From: Loktanella sp. 3ANDIMAR09
Lineage (GTDB): Bacteria > Pseudomonadota > Alphaproteobacteria > Rhodobacterales > Rhodobacteraceae
Reading direction: 5' to 3'
Length of the DNA stretch: 64,000 nt
NCBI RefSeq assembly: GCF_001420005.1
Contig: NZ_LJAK01000015.1
Location: 1 to 64,000 of the forward strand
Part shown: positions 48,526-54,065 of the stretch, one piece after another
Position numbering within the stretch: the first letter of the stretch is position 1
How the letters are laid out: the number at the start of each line of letters is the position of its first letter
The notes under the pieces: model-generated
Database searches by the model: none
Told to the model about the DNA's origin: nothing
What the model saw: only the letters and a program-made list of their open reading frames with translations
Program-made: the position numbers and the translations under genes

Positions 48526-48550
48526 GGCACCCTGCCCCGGTCATGAAAAT

Positions 48551-48574
48551 GGCCCCGCACTTGCGTGCGAGGCC
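48551..48574. terminator. bidirectional terminator-like hairpin between ktrB and the repeat-protein gene
   Basis: A ten-pair stem with one mismatch-type wobble (GGCCCCGCAC with GTGCGAGGCC) and TTGC loop. It is followed by AATTT on the plus side and ATTTTC on the minus side, so it can serve both convergent genes. Confidence 0.7.
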
Positions 48575-48599
48575 AATTTCTCCGGTTGAGGATCGCCGA

Positions 48600-50594
48600 T
48601 CAGATCACGATCGGTTCGAGGTCGAAGAAATCGCGATATGCGTTGTCCAGATCCGCTGCGGTTGCAAAGGACGTGGTGCCGTTGCCCTCTGCGTCGTATT
48701 CGGTCACGCGGAACTGCCAGCTGTTGCTTTCGTTGCCGTCGAACTGAACCCGCGCTGTCTTGGCGTTTGCATCGTCGAACAGGACCAGGATTTCATCGCC
48801 TGTATCGTATGTCGTCAGTTTGGAATCGACCCGACCTGCGTCATCATGCTGGATCTCGATCATGTCCCACTTGAAGCCGGTGCCATCGGCGCTGATGTCG
48901 GTGGTGATGCGGCTCGCGATGTCACCGTCCTCGGCATAGGTCTGGACGACCTGCTTGTCGTTGCTCAGCGTTTTCGACACCTCGGACAGATACAGCTCAC
49001 CACCCGAATCCTCGGCATAGGTCTTGGACAGTTCGGCCACGTAGACGCCCGTGCCGCTGGCCGGACCGTCCTGCGTTGTCGAAACCGCCGTCAGCTCTCC
49101 GTCGGTATAGGTGTAGCTTGTCGATTTGACGTTGCCGTTGTCGTAGGTGGTCTGGTGCTGCGTCAGGTTGCCCGCGGCATCATAGGTTTTCGCCACTTCG
49201 GACCAGGACTGTGTGCTGTCCGTGCCGCTGGCATCGGTCACGACCGAAGACGTACGCAGGCCGGTGGTCGTGTCAAAGCTGTTGACCGAGGTCACGCCGT
49301 CGTCCTTGACCAATGTGGTGGCGGACAGATCGCCATCCGCGTCATAATCACGGGTGATCGTGGCAAAGGATTTGCTGTCGGACACATCGGCGCGGACGTA
49401 TTGCGCGATGGAACCATCCTCGTTGTAGGTCCGGCTGATCGTATCGCTGTTGTCCATCGTCGTGACCGACGAAATGCGGTCGCCATCGGCGGCGTAGGTG
49501 GTCACGATGCTGTCGTAGGACCGTGTATCGGCTGCCGTGCCGTCTTCACCATCGGTGAATTCATGGCGGCTCAGGACACCCTCGGTATAGGTCTTGGTCA
49601 CGCTGGTGCCATTGTCATAGACGATCGCATCGCCCGTCTTTTCGCCCTCAACGAATGTCACGGTCTTGCTGGCCCATGCTTCGGCCGCGCCATCCGTCGA
49701 ACCGTCGGTCAGCGTGGTCGAGGTCAGCACACCCGCGACATAGGTATCCAGTTGAACCACGCCCTCCACGTCGGTCTTTTGGTCGGACAGCATGACGCCT
49801 GTCGCATCGAATGTCTGGGTCCGGCTGCTGCCGTCGTCATTGATCTGCGCGCGCGAGATGACGTTGCCTTCTGCATTCATCGTCTCGGTGATCGAGAGCC
49901 AGGAATAGACATCACCCAGATCGTTCTGCACGGCGTCCGTCATGTAGGTGGTGCCGTCCGTGGTCGCGTAGGTTTCAACGCGTTCCAGTCCGTTGTCGTA
50001 TTCATAGGTGATCTGCTGGACGTTGCCCTCACTATCGTAGTCGGTCGTGATCGTGCTGTAGCTGGAGGTATTGTCCTCGCCGGTGGCATCGGTACGGACG
50101 CGCTGGATCAATGTGCCGTCCGCCGCTGTCGTTTCCTGCACGGACGATCCGTCATCCAGTTGCGTCAGAACCGTGGTGCGACCGGTTTCCGTGTCCAGCG
50201 TCGTAGAGATGGTGGACCAGTCAGCCTGGCTGGGGTCGGCGTCGGTGCGCAGGGTCGACACAACGGTGCCCGACGCGTCGTAGCTATCGACAACCGACTG
50301 ACCGTTATCGAAAATCGTCGTCTTGGTCACGGGCAGCGATGCGCCTGACGAGGTATCGTAGATCACCTCGATGCTGGACCAGCTGTTGACGTTCTGCGCA
50401 TCGACGGACAGCCTGCGCGTCAGACCGATGTCGTCACGGTCATCGGTGATGACCAGACCGGACGTCGGTTTCGACGACACGTCATAGGTCGTCGTGCGGC
50501 TGGTTTCGACGCCGTCGGTCCGTGTGATGACGATGGTGTTCCAGTTGGACAGGTTGTCAGGGTCGGTGCGGGTTTCAGTGGTAATGGTTGGCAT
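48600..50594 (-). CDS. tandem-repeat protein of unknown function, acidic and cysteine-free
   Basis: A 664-residue protein beginning MPTITTETRTDPDN, start fixed by AGGAG eight bases before the ATG at 50594. It consists of about 12 tandem units of roughly 50 residues. Each unit opens with an aromatic residue (W, Y or F) in a pattern like SYSTITTDYDSEGN, continues with a YDNG-like turn (TTYDNGN, YEYDNGL, IVYDNGT) and ends with TD-rich turns. It contains no Cys, is rich in Asp, Thr, Ser and Gly, and lacks a signal peptide. YD/RHS-like beta-strand repeats are the nearest pattern. The C-terminus (AYRDFFDLEPIVI) could be a type I secretion signal. Real function unknown. Confidence 0.75.
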   Translation of the reverse strand: MPTITTETRTDPDNLSNWNTIVITRTDGVETSRTTTYDVSSKPTSGLVITDDRDDIGLTRRLSVDAQNVNSWSSIEVIYDTSSGASLPVTKTTIFDNGQSVVDSYDASGTVVSTLRTDADPSQADWSTISTTLDTETGRTTVLTQLDDGSSVQETTAADGTLIQRVRTDATGEDNTSSYSTITTDYDSEGNVQQITYEYDNGLERVETYATTDGTTYMTDAVQNDLGDVYSWLSITETMNAEGNVISRAQINDDGSSRTQTFDATGVMLSDQKTDVEGVVQLDTYVAGVLTSTTLTDGSTDGAAEAWASKTVTFVEGEKTGDAIVYDNGTSVTKTYTEGVLSRHEFTDGEDGTAADTRSYDSIVTTYAADGDRISSVTTMDNSDTISRTYNEDGSIAQYVRADVSDSKSFATITRDYDADGDLSATTLVKDDGVTSVNSFDTTTGLRTSSVVTDASGTDSTQSWSEVAKTYDAAGNLTQHQTTYDNGNVKSTSYTYTDGELTAVSTTQDGPASGTGVYVAELSKTYAEDSGGELYLSEVSKTLSNDKQVVQTYAEDGDIASRITTDISADGTGFKWDMIEIQHDDAGRVDSKLTTYDTGDEILVLFDDANAKTARVQFDGNESNSWQFRVTEYDAEGNGTTSFATAADLDNAYRDFFDLEPIVI

Positions 50595-50660
50595 TTTCAG
50601 CTCCTCGATCAAATCCTCGAGAGCCGGGATAGGTGCCAAATGTGTTCTGATTTGGAAAAC

Positions 50661-50673: not shown

Positions 50674-50754
50674 TTCGTTCATTGGTGATGGCCCGCCGCG
50701 TGATTTGCCACAATCCGTGGCATTGCAGTGGCAAGGTCCCTACCCCCCAAACGC

Positions 50755-50779
50755 AAAAGGCCCCGCAAATTGCGGGGCC
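50755..50779 (-). terminator. rho-independent terminator of tsf
   Basis: An eight-pair stem (GGCCCCGC with GCGGGGCC), five-base loop, and TTTT on the minus strand, about 23 bases after the tsf stop. Confidence 0.9.
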
Positions 50780-50801
50780 TTTCGTCAGATCCCGAACGGG
50801 A

Positions 50802-51674
50802 TCACTTGTTCATTTTTGCCACTTCTGCGGCAAAGTCTTCTTTCTCGATTTCGATGCCTTCGCCGACTTCCAGACGCTGGAACGCGGTGATGGTCACGCC
50901 GGCTTCTTCGGCGGCCTTGGCCACGGTCAGGTCGGGGTTCACGACGAATGCCTGACCCAACAGCGTGGATTCAGCCAGGAACTTTGCCATGCGGCCGACG
51001 ATCATCTTTTCGATGACGGCCTCGGGCTTGCCGGATTCGCGCGCGATGTCCATCTGGACCTGCTTTTCCTTTTCGACGATCGCCGGGTCCAGATCAGCCT
51101 CGCTCAGGGCGGCGGGGTTTGCCGCAGCGATGTGCATCGCGACCTGACGGCCGAACGCCTCGTTGTCGCCGTCCATGGCCACCAGAACGCCGATGCTGCC
51201 CATGCCGGGTGCAACCGAGTTATGGACATAGGACACGACAGTGCTGCCGTTGACGGTCGCCATGCGACGCACGGACATGTTTTCACCGATCACGGCGACG
51301 GCGTCGGTCACGGTCTGCTCGACGGTCTTGCCGTCGACTTCGGTCGCCTTGAGCGCGTCGACATCATCAACGGTCACGGCTGCCGTTGCGATCTTGCCGA
51401 CCATTTTCTGGAAATCAGCGTTTTTCGCGACGAAATCGGTTTCCGAGTTCACTTCGACGGCGACGCCCTTGCCACCTTCGGTTGCCACGGCAACCAGACC
51501 TTCGGCGGCGGTGCGGCCGGATTTCTTGGCGGCCTTGGCCAGACCCTTGGTGCGCAGCCAGTCAACCGCGGCTTCCATGTCGCCGTTGGTTTCGGTCAGC
51601 GCCTTCTTGGCGTCCATCATGCCCGCGCCAGTCGTGTCGCGAAGCTCTTTTACCTGTGCTGCAGTAACAGCCAT
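50802..51674 (-). CDS. tsf: translation elongation factor Ts
   Basis: Nucleotide exchange factor for EF-Tu. 290 residues. N-terminal UBA-like domain [28 protein letters not shown], core motif [13 protein letters not shown] near residue 75, then dimerisation subdomains and [10 protein letters not shown]. The ATG at 51674 has AGGAG nine bases upstream. It follows rpsB, the standard order, after a GC-rich hairpin. Confidence 0.96.
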
Positions 51675-51757
51675 GATCATTCTCCTGATATATTCGGGAC
51701 CGGGCCAGGGCGTGCGCACAGCACGGCCCGGGCCCTTGGTCTGGTGCAGGTTGTCTC

Positions 51758-51780
51758 ACCCGGGCATGACGCCCGGGTGA
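51758..51780 (-). other. GC-rich hairpin in the rpsB-tsf intergenic region
   Basis: A perfect nine-pair stem (CACCCGGGC with GCCCGGGTG) eight bases after the rpsB stop, without a T-run. It may be a processing or attenuation site setting S2 and EF-Ts levels. Confidence 0.5.
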
Positions 51781-51788
51781 CGCAAGGC

Positions 51789-52580
51789 TCAGGCCTCTGC
51801 GGCAGCTTCTTCGCTGGCGGCGGCAGCAGCTGCGGCATCTTCTTCTGCCATCAGCTCTTCCATGGCACCCATGTCGACGCCTGCTGCACCCAGCTGGGCC
51901 TGCATGCCGTCAAGGGCAGCACGGGCAGCCAGATCACAGTACAGCTGGATCGCGCGGGCTGCGTCGTCGTTGCCGGGGATGACATAGTCGACACCCTTGG
52001 GCGAGCAGTTGGTGTCGACGACAGCAACCACAGGGATACCCAGCTTCTGTGCTTCGAGAATAGCGAGGTCTTCCTTGTTGACGTCGATGACGAACAACAG
52101 GTCGGGCACGCCGCCCATTTCGCGGATACCGCCCAGCGACGCTTGCAGTTTGCCCTGCTCACGTTCCATGCCCAGACGCTCTTTCTTGGTCAGGCCGGCA
52201 AAGCCGTTCTCGGACGCTTCGTCGATCTGCTTGAGGCGGTTGATCGACTGGGAGACGGTCTGCCAGTTGGTCAGCGTGCCGCCCAGCCAGCGGTGGTTCA
52301 TGTAGAACTGCGCGGATTTCTCTGCAGCGTCCTTGATGGGGTTCTGTGCCTGACGCTTGGTGCCGACGAACAGCACGCGGCCGCCCTTGGCAACCGTGTC
52401 ACGCACGACTTGCAGCGCCTGGTCCAGCATCGGGACGGTCTGCGTCAGGTCCATGATGTGAATGCCGTTGCGCGCGCCATAGATGAAGGGCGACATGCGC
52501 GGGTTCCAGCGTGCGGTCTGGTGGCCGAAGTGAACGCCAGCTTCAAGCAGCTGACGCATGGAGAACTCGGGAAGAGCCAT
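51789..52580 (-). CDS. rpsB: 30S ribosomal protein S2
   Basis: 263 residues, with the S2 signature blocks [24 protein letters not shown] at the N-terminus and [28 protein letters not shown] in the second half. The C-terminus is an Ala/Glu-rich tail, longer than in E. coli by about 20 residues. The ATG at 52580 has AAGGATAAG upstream, directly after the closing arm of a long leader stem. Confidence 0.97.
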
Positions 52581-52594
52581 GGTCTTATCCTTTT

Positions 52595-52715
52595 CCGGTT
52601 TAGCCTCAGCGGGGGTATCAGACCGAATGGTCCAACCGGTGGATCGTTTGGGATTTCTCCCCAACCGACCCGCCCCCGCCTGCGGGATACGTGCGCGTCC
52701 CTTAGGCTAAACCGG
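52595..52715 (-). promoter_or_regulatory. structured mRNA leader of rpsB, possible S2 autoregulatory site
   Basis: Two exact 12-base inverted arms (52715-52704 and 52606-52595) enclose about 97 bases and end just before the ribosome site. Nested inside are seven-base arms GCGGGGG/CCCCCGC (52679-52673 with 52615-52609). S2 represses its own mRNA in other bacteria; that this fold does so here is inference. Confidence 0.55.
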
Positions 52716-52730
52716 CACAGGCCGCAACCC

Positions 52731-54065
52731 TCAAAGGAATACGCGTTCCACCACCCAGTAAATCGCAACGATCGCGATCAGGACCGACGCCGGCTGGGCA
52801 ACGATATCAGAATAGCTGTCATAGCGCCCGACGTTCACGGCCACCGCACACAGGCCCAGCAGCACCGCGAATGTCGCCATCACGGGCAGCAGGTCACCGG
52901 TCCAGCCCGGCGCATAGGCCGCCAGCGGCACCAGCATGGCCAGCAGCACGACAACCGCCAACAAATAGGCAGCCGCCGCCGTAATGCTGCGCGTGCCAGC
53001 CGCACTGTAGTCCTGCGCCTTGTAGACGCAGAGAAACGCCAGCGCGATCACGGACAACTGACCGATCTCGACCCCGATGTTGAACCCGATCAGCGCAGGC
53101 ACGAACTGGCCCTCGGGCAATCCGAATTCGGCCAACACCGATGCAAAGCCCAGACCATGCAACAGGCCAAAGCCAAAAATGATGACCGGCCGCCAGGGCG
53201 ACAGCCCGCGTGAAAACAGGTTCTCGATGGCGACATAGGCAATGGACAGCGCGATCAGCGGTTCCACGATGCTGGCCGGCGCGGTGACATAGCCCAGCGC
53301 GGCAAGCGCCAGCGTGATCGTATGCGCCAGCGTGAACGCCGACACCTGCCACAGCAGCGGTGCCAGCCGGGTGGACAGGAAAAACAGCCCCAGCACGAAC
53401 AGGATATGGTCCAGACCCAGCGGCACGATGTGATCGAACCCGGTCGGGATATAGCTGAAAAACGTAGCCACCGTCCCCTTGGCGTTGCCGCCGCCCAGCG
53501 CGATCACATCAGACGTGGCACCACCCTGCAGAAACGCGTCATAGGGTTGATCCACGCCCTGCTGACGCAGTACCAGCCCACCATAGCTGCGATCCCAGCC
53601 GACGGTGACGCTGTCCGCACCGCCAGGCAGATCTGCCGCGAACACAAAGGTCGACAGGCGCGGCACCTCCGGGTCATCCACCGGTTCCGTCGTCACCGAT
53701 TCCAGCACAAGCGGCAGCGCCTGCCCATTCGCCATCACCATGATACCTTCGGCCATGGTGGGGAAAAACGCCGTGAATTCTGCCGCGATCTCTTGTGGGG
53801 GCAGCGCGCGCAGCGCGTCGTAGCGTGCGGCCTGCGGGGCGGTGTCGGTATCCGTCACCGCGCTTTTGTCGATCCCGGCCAGAAAACCCTCGATGTTGGC
53901 ATCGACGGAAAACGTCAGCCTGTCACCATCGCGCGTCATGTCGGCGATGGCAGGCAGCACCTCGTGGGCGCGCAGCGGTGACGCCAGCGTGATGAACACC
54001 AGCGCCAGACTTGACAACAAGCCCAGAAACAACACCCTCGGGCCAGTAAATAAGGAACTCGTCAT
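52731..54065 (-). CDS. HupE/UreJ_2-type membrane protein
   Basis: 444 residues. Signal peptide MTSSLFTGPRVLFLGLLSSLALVFITLASPLRA is cut before HEVLPAIADM, so the mature protein starts with His. Residues 35-200 form an exported domain. Then about seven helices follow with the family motif FDHIVPLGLDHILFVLGLFF and HTITLALAALG, GFGLLHGLGFA. HupE/UreJ proteins are linked to nickel or other metal handling. The ATG at 54065 shares CATG with the divergent DUF4198 gene. GTG at 54035 is an alternative start. Confidence 0.82.
   Translation of the reverse strand: MTSSLFTGPRVLFLGLLSSLALVFITLASPLRAHEVLPAIADMTRDGDRLTFSVDANIEGFLAGIDKSAVTDTDTAPQAARYDALRALPPQEIAAEFTAFFPTMAEGIMVMANGQALPLVLESVTTEPVDDPEVPRLSTFVFAADLPGGADSVTVGWDRSYGGLVLRQQGVDQPYDAFLQGGATSDVIALGGGNAKGTVATFFSYIPTGFDHIVPLGLDHILFVLGLFFLSTRLAPLLWQVSAFTLAHTITLALAALGYVTAPASIVEPLIALSIAYVAIENLFSRGLSPWRPVIIFGFGLLHGLGFASVLAEFGLPEGQFVPALIGFNIGVEIGQLSVIALAFLCVYKAQDYSAAGTRSITAAAAYLLAVVVLLAMLVPLAAYAPGWTGDLLPVMATFAVLLGLCAVAVNVGRYDSYSDIVAQPASVLIAIVAIYWVVERVFL

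What the first reader, a model, noticed from the sequence alone, without database searches (positions are those of the whole stretch)
48600..50594. Unclassified cysteine-free tandem-repeat protein (about 12 units of about 50 residues)
The sequence shows aromatic-led repeat units with a YDNG-like turn running through the whole protein. It has no Cys, a strong Asp/Thr/Ser bias and no signal peptide, in an otherwise housekeeping neighbourhood between ktrB and tsf. The nearest known pattern is YD/RHS-type beta repeats, but core domains of those toxins are absent. A type I-exported surface protein is one guess.
Basis: partly seen in the sequence, partly recalled or inferred. Interest (0 to 1): 0.7.

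Follow-up and report, generated by a model that had tools for sequence, protein, structure and literature searches.

The report
Undescribed repeat module of exported proteins
A marine bacterium carries a conserved protein built only of about twelve copies of an undescribed repeat of about 50 residues; relatives of this repeat cap the tail ends of large proteins of the type that bacteria export, so it is probably an exported surface or matrix protein, though that has not been tested.

Summary
The minus strand at 48600-50594 encodes a 664-aa Cys-free protein of 12 diverged units of 46-75 residues. A profile made from 15 units of four other proteins scores it 154.5 bits; the best of 500 shuffles scores 9.6. 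Pfam, NCBIfam, PHROGs and PDB sequence searches give no accepted match. The gene is under purifying selection (dN/dS 0.08 and 0.18) and present in 3 of 9 genus genomes, each time beside tsf. Related arrays occur in 23 of 394 genomes of the family, own genome included. I examined 37 array-bearing frames; in 15 the array ends within 8 residues of the C-terminus, and 11 of those 15 carry RTX calcium repeats over Pfam's cut-off. In one genome an array gene lies directly beside type I secretion genes hlyB and hlyD. Best reading: an undescribed module of type I-exported proteins, here standing alone. Against it: no linked secretion genes at the window gene, an inconclusive C-terminal signal, one giant with the array at its N-terminus, and no fold prediction (tool off).

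The parts
48600..50594 (-). Stand-alone array protein, 664 aa (P0001), ATG start at 50594, TGA stop
   Evidence: dN/dS 0.076 and 0.177
50601..50606 (-). GAGGAG ribosome-binding site, 6 nt before the ATG
   Evidence: read by eye
50403..50564 (-). repeat unit 1 (residues 11-64); 78% identical to the G299 orthologue, second most conserved unit
50241..50402 (-). repeat unit 2 (65-118)
50082..50240 (-). repeat unit 3 (119-171)
49923..50081 (-). repeat unit 4 (172-224)
49698..49922 (-). repeat unit 5 with an extra half unit (225-299, 75 residues)
49539..49697 (-). repeat unit 6 (300-352)
49389..49538 (-). repeat unit 7 (353-402)
49227..49388 (-). repeat unit 8 (403-456)
49074..49226 (-). repeat unit 9 (457-507)
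48897..49073 (-). repeat unit 10 (508-566), degenerate: only a weak 17-residue hit
48741..48896 (-). repeat unit 11 (567-618); most conserved unit, 81% identical to G299
48603..48740 (-). terminal half unit (619-645) and C-terminal tail ending DFFDLEPIVI; candidate type I secretion signal (inferred)
48550..48575 (-). terminator-like hairpin just after the stop codon
   Evidence: sequence
50759..50779 (-). terminator-like GC-rich hairpin after tsf, which separates tsf from the array gene
   Evidence: read by eye; the scan did not list it

Best explanation
The gene encodes a stand-alone version of an undescribed repeat module of about 49 residues: conserved D1, an aromatic at 8 (mostly W), Y-D-x-x-G, D-[DN]-G and [FY]-x-x-G. 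The module belongs to proteins of the kind exported by type I secretion, in the family of the window genome and, rarely, outside it. Shown: the repeat, its spread, its purifying selection, and its place at the C-terminal end of many RTX, serralysin-type and cadherin-like proteins. Inferred: each unit forms about four antiparallel beta strands joined by Asp/Gly turns, giving a long acidic beta-rod. Also inferred: the protein is exported without a signal peptide by one of the genome's own PrtD/HlyB-type systems through its C-terminal end, folds outside (possibly with Ca2+), and acts in the cell surface or matrix rather than as an enzyme.
For: Homology of the units to those of other array proteins (154.5 bits against at most 9.6 in shuffles). 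In 15 of 37 array frames the array ends 0-8 residues before the C-terminus; 11 of these 15 carry HemolysinCabind over its cut-off. Four frames are serralysin-type (Peptidase_M10_C over cut-off). Unlike N-terminal parts share a similar terminal half unit. In G504 the array gene is followed on the same strand, 68 bases on, by an HlyB-type transporter (TIGR01846, 930.9 bits against cut-off 725.55) and then HlyD (TIGR01843, 336.0 against 208.65). Own genome: two listed PrtD transporters over the cut-off and 83 RTX repeat matches. Array regions hold 3 Cys in 11,528 residues. P0001 has no Cys, pI 4.05. Its last 20 residues score 4 on composition features of RTX ends; 2 of 114 background frames reach that once array frames are taken out of the background (4 of 122 with them in; features from passages of PMC8861453). 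dN/dS is low.
Against: No listed type I transporter lies on the contig of the window gene; PrtD transporters are in 21 of 21 genomes tested, with or without the array, so their presence does not discriminate. The last two residues, VI, miss the [FLI][VAI] motif, and its stand-alone relatives score 0 to 4 on the same 20-residue test. The array is N-terminal in G078 (residues 57-385 of a 6401-residue frame) and is followed by 599, 255, 171 and 121 residues in L131, L133, L126 and L132; L133 is the very frame beside hlyB and hlyD. 16 of the 29 Pfam-scanned frames show no RTX repeat over the cut-off (some scanned in part). No structure was predicted, so beta strands are inferred from the turn pattern.
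Confidence: 0.55

Rival explanations
1. A cytosolic or cell-bound protein: the stand-alone arrays lost export and serve inside the cell as a beta scaffold, while only the RTX-fused arrays are exported.
For: No linked secretion genes seen near the window gene; ends of stand-alone arrays do not match the published motif in most cases and several score low. Housekeeping neighbours TrkA, TrkH, EF-Ts and S2.
Against: Array regions are almost Cys-free (3 of 11,528 residues) and the protein is very acidic (pI 4.05), both usual in exported RTX proteins (recalled; passages of PMC3034196 say so for some classes). The terminal half unit resembles that of RTX-fused arrays.
Confidence: 0.25
2. A derived RHS/YD-repeat protein that forms a shell or wraps a cargo.
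For: Sub-threshold RHS_repeat match (15.8 bits against 22); profile-profile probability 79% over 27 columns.
Against: Period about 49, not about 21; a profile of RHS repeats gives only marginal hits in the fetched frames (3 frames, E 0.0016, 0.007 and 0.061), and the array profile gives one marginal hit among RHS frames (15.3 bits). No core or toxin domain was found: the whole protein is array.
Confidence: 0.1
3. A remnant of a larger RTX gene that has lost its other domains and is decaying.
For: Arrays elsewhere are often the tails of larger proteins; 6 of 9 genus genomes have no match.
Against: dN/dS 0.076 and 0.177, a good ribosome-binding site and own terminator-like hairpin, full-length orthologues in two other genus genomes, and a stand-alone relative beside tsf in another genus.
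Confidence: 0.05
4. A MORN_2-type (YwqK-like) repeat protein.
For: Sub-threshold MORN_2 match: 19 bits in the window protein, 27.8 and 28.1 in G001 and G146, against a cut-off of 29.6.
Against: No scanned array frame is listed over the cut-off; the unit of 49 with a leading Trp and near-invariant Asp differs from the 22-residue MORN_2 model. A MORN_2 match over the cut-off was found in 0 of 100 family genomes, but that search scores single short matches.
Confidence: 0.05

Closest known systems
RTX exoproteins (HemolysinCabind, PF00353) exported by type I secretion
   Same: The array module is fused to such proteins, mostly on their C-terminal side; acidic, Asp/Gly turns, nearly no Cys, no N-terminal signal seen
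   Different: The window protein has no nonapeptide RTX repeat; the unit is about 49 residues with aromatics, not 9 with GGxGxD
RHS/YD repeats (PF05593)
   Same: YDxxG turn; distant profile similarity
   Different: Period about 49 against about 21, below the Pfam cut-off, no RHS core or C-terminal toxin
MORN_2 (PF07661)
   Same: Aromatic-x-x-G turns, weak matches
   Different: Below cut-off; longer unit with Trp and near-invariant Asp
Leisingera sp. S132 plasmid protein WP_260018815.1 (Ig-like domain-containing protein)
   Same: Named protein with a matching stretch near its C-terminal end (34.4% identity over 27% of the query; the match stops about 90 residues before the end)
   Different: About 3,000 residues long and annotated for Ig-like domains; the array itself is not annotated
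Serralysin-type proteases (Peptidase_M10_C, PF08548)
   Same: Four relatives carry this array behind the protease and RTX parts
   Different: The window protein has no protease part

Membership tests
RHS/YD repeat (PF05593) | Match over Pfam's gathering score | tested here: not met
   15.8 bits against 22
RHS/YD repeat (PF05593) | Repeat period of about 21 residues | tested here: not met
   period 49 in regular arrays, units of 46-75 in P0001; neighbouring RHS matches are often about 63 bases apart
RHS/YD repeat (PF05593) | Profile similarity | tested here: inconclusive
   hhalign probability 79%, P 1.6e-5, 27 columns
MORN_2 (PF07661) | Match over Pfam's gathering score | tested here: not met
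   19 bits against 29.6
RTX protein | GGxGxDxUx nonapeptide repeats | tested here: not met
   no HemolysinCabind match listed for P0001 up to E 10
Type I secretion substrate | C-terminal, uncleaved secretion signal | tested here: inconclusive
   C20 composition score reached by 2 of 114 background frames (4 of 122, which still held array frames); [FLI][VAI] ending absent
Type I secretion substrate | Linked HlyB/HlyD/TolC genes | tested here: inconclusive
   none listed on the contig of the window gene; HlyB and HlyD directly beside the array gene of G504; TolC not looked for
Type I secretion substrate | Found outside the cell | not testable with these tools
   needs proteomics or a reporter fusion
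The 49-residue repeat family described here | Score against a profile made without the window protein | tested here: met
   154.5 bits, E 9.9e-48; shuffles at most 9.6 bits

The most novel reading that the evidence does not exclude
The array is a portable export module: its terminal half unit (aromatic, mostly W, then x6-[YF]-[DN]-x-x-G, then a short run to the end) is itself the type I secretion signal and replaces the usual RTX ending. It has been moved onto proteases, a Hint-like protein, adhesin giants and, as in the window, onto nothing at all. Repeats with Asp turns then fold on the outside and pull the chain through.
Probability: 0.25. Interest if true: 0.65.

Novelty: new variant of a known kind. 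Interest (0 to 1): 0.45.

Why it matters
An undescribed repeat, without an accepted family of its own in the Pfam and NCBIfam copies searched, marks the ends of many giant proteins of the exported kind in a large group of marine bacteria. It gives a handle for finding further type I substrates that lack RTX repeats, and a testable idea of what the C-terminal export signal is in them.

Tried and rejected
Tandem DNA repeats: none in the gene. PHROGs and PDB sequence searches: no relevant match. Phage and viral relatives: no phage match, none confirmed in two viral scans (with relatives as queries); a phage origin is not supported. Plasmids: one record only, Leisingera. Presence of PrtD as a discriminator: rejected, since 21 of 21 genomes have it. 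Shifted self-alignments for folding: overlapping segments collapsed onto themselves; non-overlapping ones aligned, but folding was switched off. An operon with tsf: unlikely, a hairpin lies between (read by eye). Other ABC-like hits near arrays (8 frames): besides L133 only L124 was scanned further, and it is an ABC-F type protein; the other six were not taken as secretion genes and not scanned. One Pfam match over its cut-off does lie inside an array (PmbA_TldD_3rd in G065, 22.5 bits against 22, 27 of 220 profile positions); I take it as chance. Literature: searches listed no paper whose title or abstract start names this repeat; I saw passages of PMC8861453 and PMC3034196, the rest only as search listings with abstract starts.

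Weak points of my own counts. Background frames were chosen by length and may include frames that are not genes; the background Cys value (1.85%) is therefore not a proteome value. The first background held array frames; one search takes 8 of them out. The profile used for searches was iterated and includes window units; only one search is free of them. The 37 frames include three orthologues of one gene, frames cut at the edge of a stretch, and a short frame (L135). 8 of the 37 were not scanned with Pfam, and five (G065, G073, G078, G284, L139) only in part or cut by the stretch.

Full report
What is there. The minus strand at 48600-50594 encodes a 664-residue protein that starts at an ATG behind a GAGGAG site (by eye) and is followed by a terminator-like hairpin. 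It lies between trkH (convergent) and tsf (same strand, with a hairpin of its own after it, by eye); TrkA, TrkH, EF-Ts and S2 were confirmed by Pfam. It has no Cys, much Thr, Asp and Ser, pI 4.05.

Is the repeat real? Self-comparison peaks at 54 and 51 residues. A profile from 15 units of four other proteins, with no window unit in it, scores 154.5 bits; the best of 500 shuffles scores 9.6 and the reversed protein is not reported. The iterated profile lets twelve units be laid out by hand, 46 to 75 residues long; they share 27% identity on average. In more regular relatives the spacing is 49 (G065, G284, and most units of G286, G262 and G163). The strongest positions of the iterated profile are D1 (model probability 0.99), G41 (0.95), G19 (0.90), D29 (0.88), G31 (0.85), W8 (0.84) and F or Y at 38 (0.47 and 0.44).

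Is the gene alive? Orthologues are 96% and 65% identical over nearly full length in two other genomes of the genus, G297 and G299. G297 is very probably Loktanella sp. DSM 29012, which a separate search named at 96% on a contig of the same length, 489,318 bases. dN/dS is 0.076 and 0.177, against 0.029 and 0.060 for tsf.

Where it sits. Of 9 genus genomes 3 have it, each time just downstream of tsf. In the window genome and G297 trkH is on its other side; in G299 no trkH match was found within the fetched 15 kb. In the other 6 genus genomes a TrkH-like frame lies directly next to tsf, roughly 100-235 bases away (read from frames). In another genus, G340, a stand-alone array of 566 residues also lies just downstream of tsf (tsf 80% identical) and rpsB; it is 28% identical to P0001 over 423 residues, and the alignments run almost to both C-termini. 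So the place beside tsf is shared across two genera: it is old with losses, or was re-used.

Known families. For P0001 Pfam gives only sub-threshold MORN_2 and RHS_repeat; NCBIfam none, PHROGs and PDB nothing of use. A profile of RHS repeats made here resembles the array profile weakly: 79% probability over 27 columns, but only marginal cross hits. It is a distant cousin at most. Inside the arrays of relatives, one Pfam match passes its cut-off (PmbA_TldD_3rd in G065, 22.5 bits against 22, a short piece of the profile), which I take as chance.

Where else it occurs. A protein search found it in 13 of 295 family genomes; an alignment of 22 two-unit segments in 23 of 394 and in 6 of 398 of the phylum, three of these outside the family; own genome counted each time, and the draws overlap. 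I looked at 37 array-bearing frames. In 15 of 37 the array ends within 8 residues of the C-terminus. Of the 29 scanned with Pfam (five in part or cut), 13 carry RTX repeats over the cut-off, 4 the serralysin C-terminal domain, and 5 cadherin-like or Ig-like domains, with overlap between these groups. One frame, G081a, has Hint-like and RTX matches under the cut-offs. The rest are arrays alone or with parts that no model matched over its cut-off. Twenty C-terminal ends that I chose and aligned (the 15 within 8 residues plus 5 stand-alone ones) share a terminal half unit; 5 of these 20 have the [FLI][VAI] ending. Exceptions to the C-terminal place: the array is N-terminal in G078, and 599, 255, 171 and 121 residues follow it in four others.

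Link to secretion. In G504 the array-bearing frame (2640 aa, array followed by 255 residues) is followed by an HlyB-type transporter and an HlyD adaptor on the same strand. The window gene has no such neighbours among the listed matches. Its genome has two listed PrtD transporters over the cut-off and 83 RTX repeat matches, but all 21 genomes tested have PrtD. By features named in passages of PMC8861453 the last 20 residues look moderately like an RTX end (score 4; 2 of 114 background frames reach it), without the last-two motif. Nine RTX frames of the own genome score from -5 to 8 on the same test, so the test separates poorly.

How it probably works (inferred). Strands between the Asp/Gly turns make an acidic beta-rod. 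Low Cys and an unfolded state in the cytosol would suit type I export; the C-terminal end would be recognised; folding outside, perhaps with Ca2+, would follow, as described for RTX repeats (PMC3034196 passages). Function is then structural: surface layer, matrix or adhesion. Confidence 0.55 for the whole reading; the repeat family itself is close to certain.

Limits. No fold could be predicted, so the beta structure is not tested. All evidence of export is by kinship.

Noticed in passing
L128:7140-11304 (G127): Three successive frames of 421, 442 and 463 residues, each with array units and similar ends (VLYTVV, ILYTLA, VMTVFV): a tandem family of array genes.
   Followed up: partly
L034:5929-10691 (G286): A stand-alone array lies directly behind a sugar transferase and a polysaccharide biosynthesis gene on the same strand, which hints at a role at the cell surface.
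   Followed up: partly
L172 and L176 (own genome, C2 and C15 outside the window): Two RTX frames end in a similar basic stretch (A-x3-L-x2-HEA-x-LL) instead of the usual hydrophobic RTX ending.
   Followed up: no
window 48543-50348 + and 50682-53213 +: Long open frames (601 and 843 aa) antisense to the array gene and to tsf-rpsB; likely shadows of codon usage in GC-rich DNA.
   Followed up: no
L025-L027 (G065 C6): A Cys-free open frame of more than 9,000 residues in the fetched stretch, with cadherin-like and RTX domains, ends in 12 array units, several nearly identical, so its array probably grew recently.
   Followed up: partly
L028:15004 onward (G078 C37): A 6401-residue frame carries the array near its N-terminus, followed by Ig-like and cadherin-like domains: the one clear exception of that kind among the 37 frames.
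   Followed up: partly
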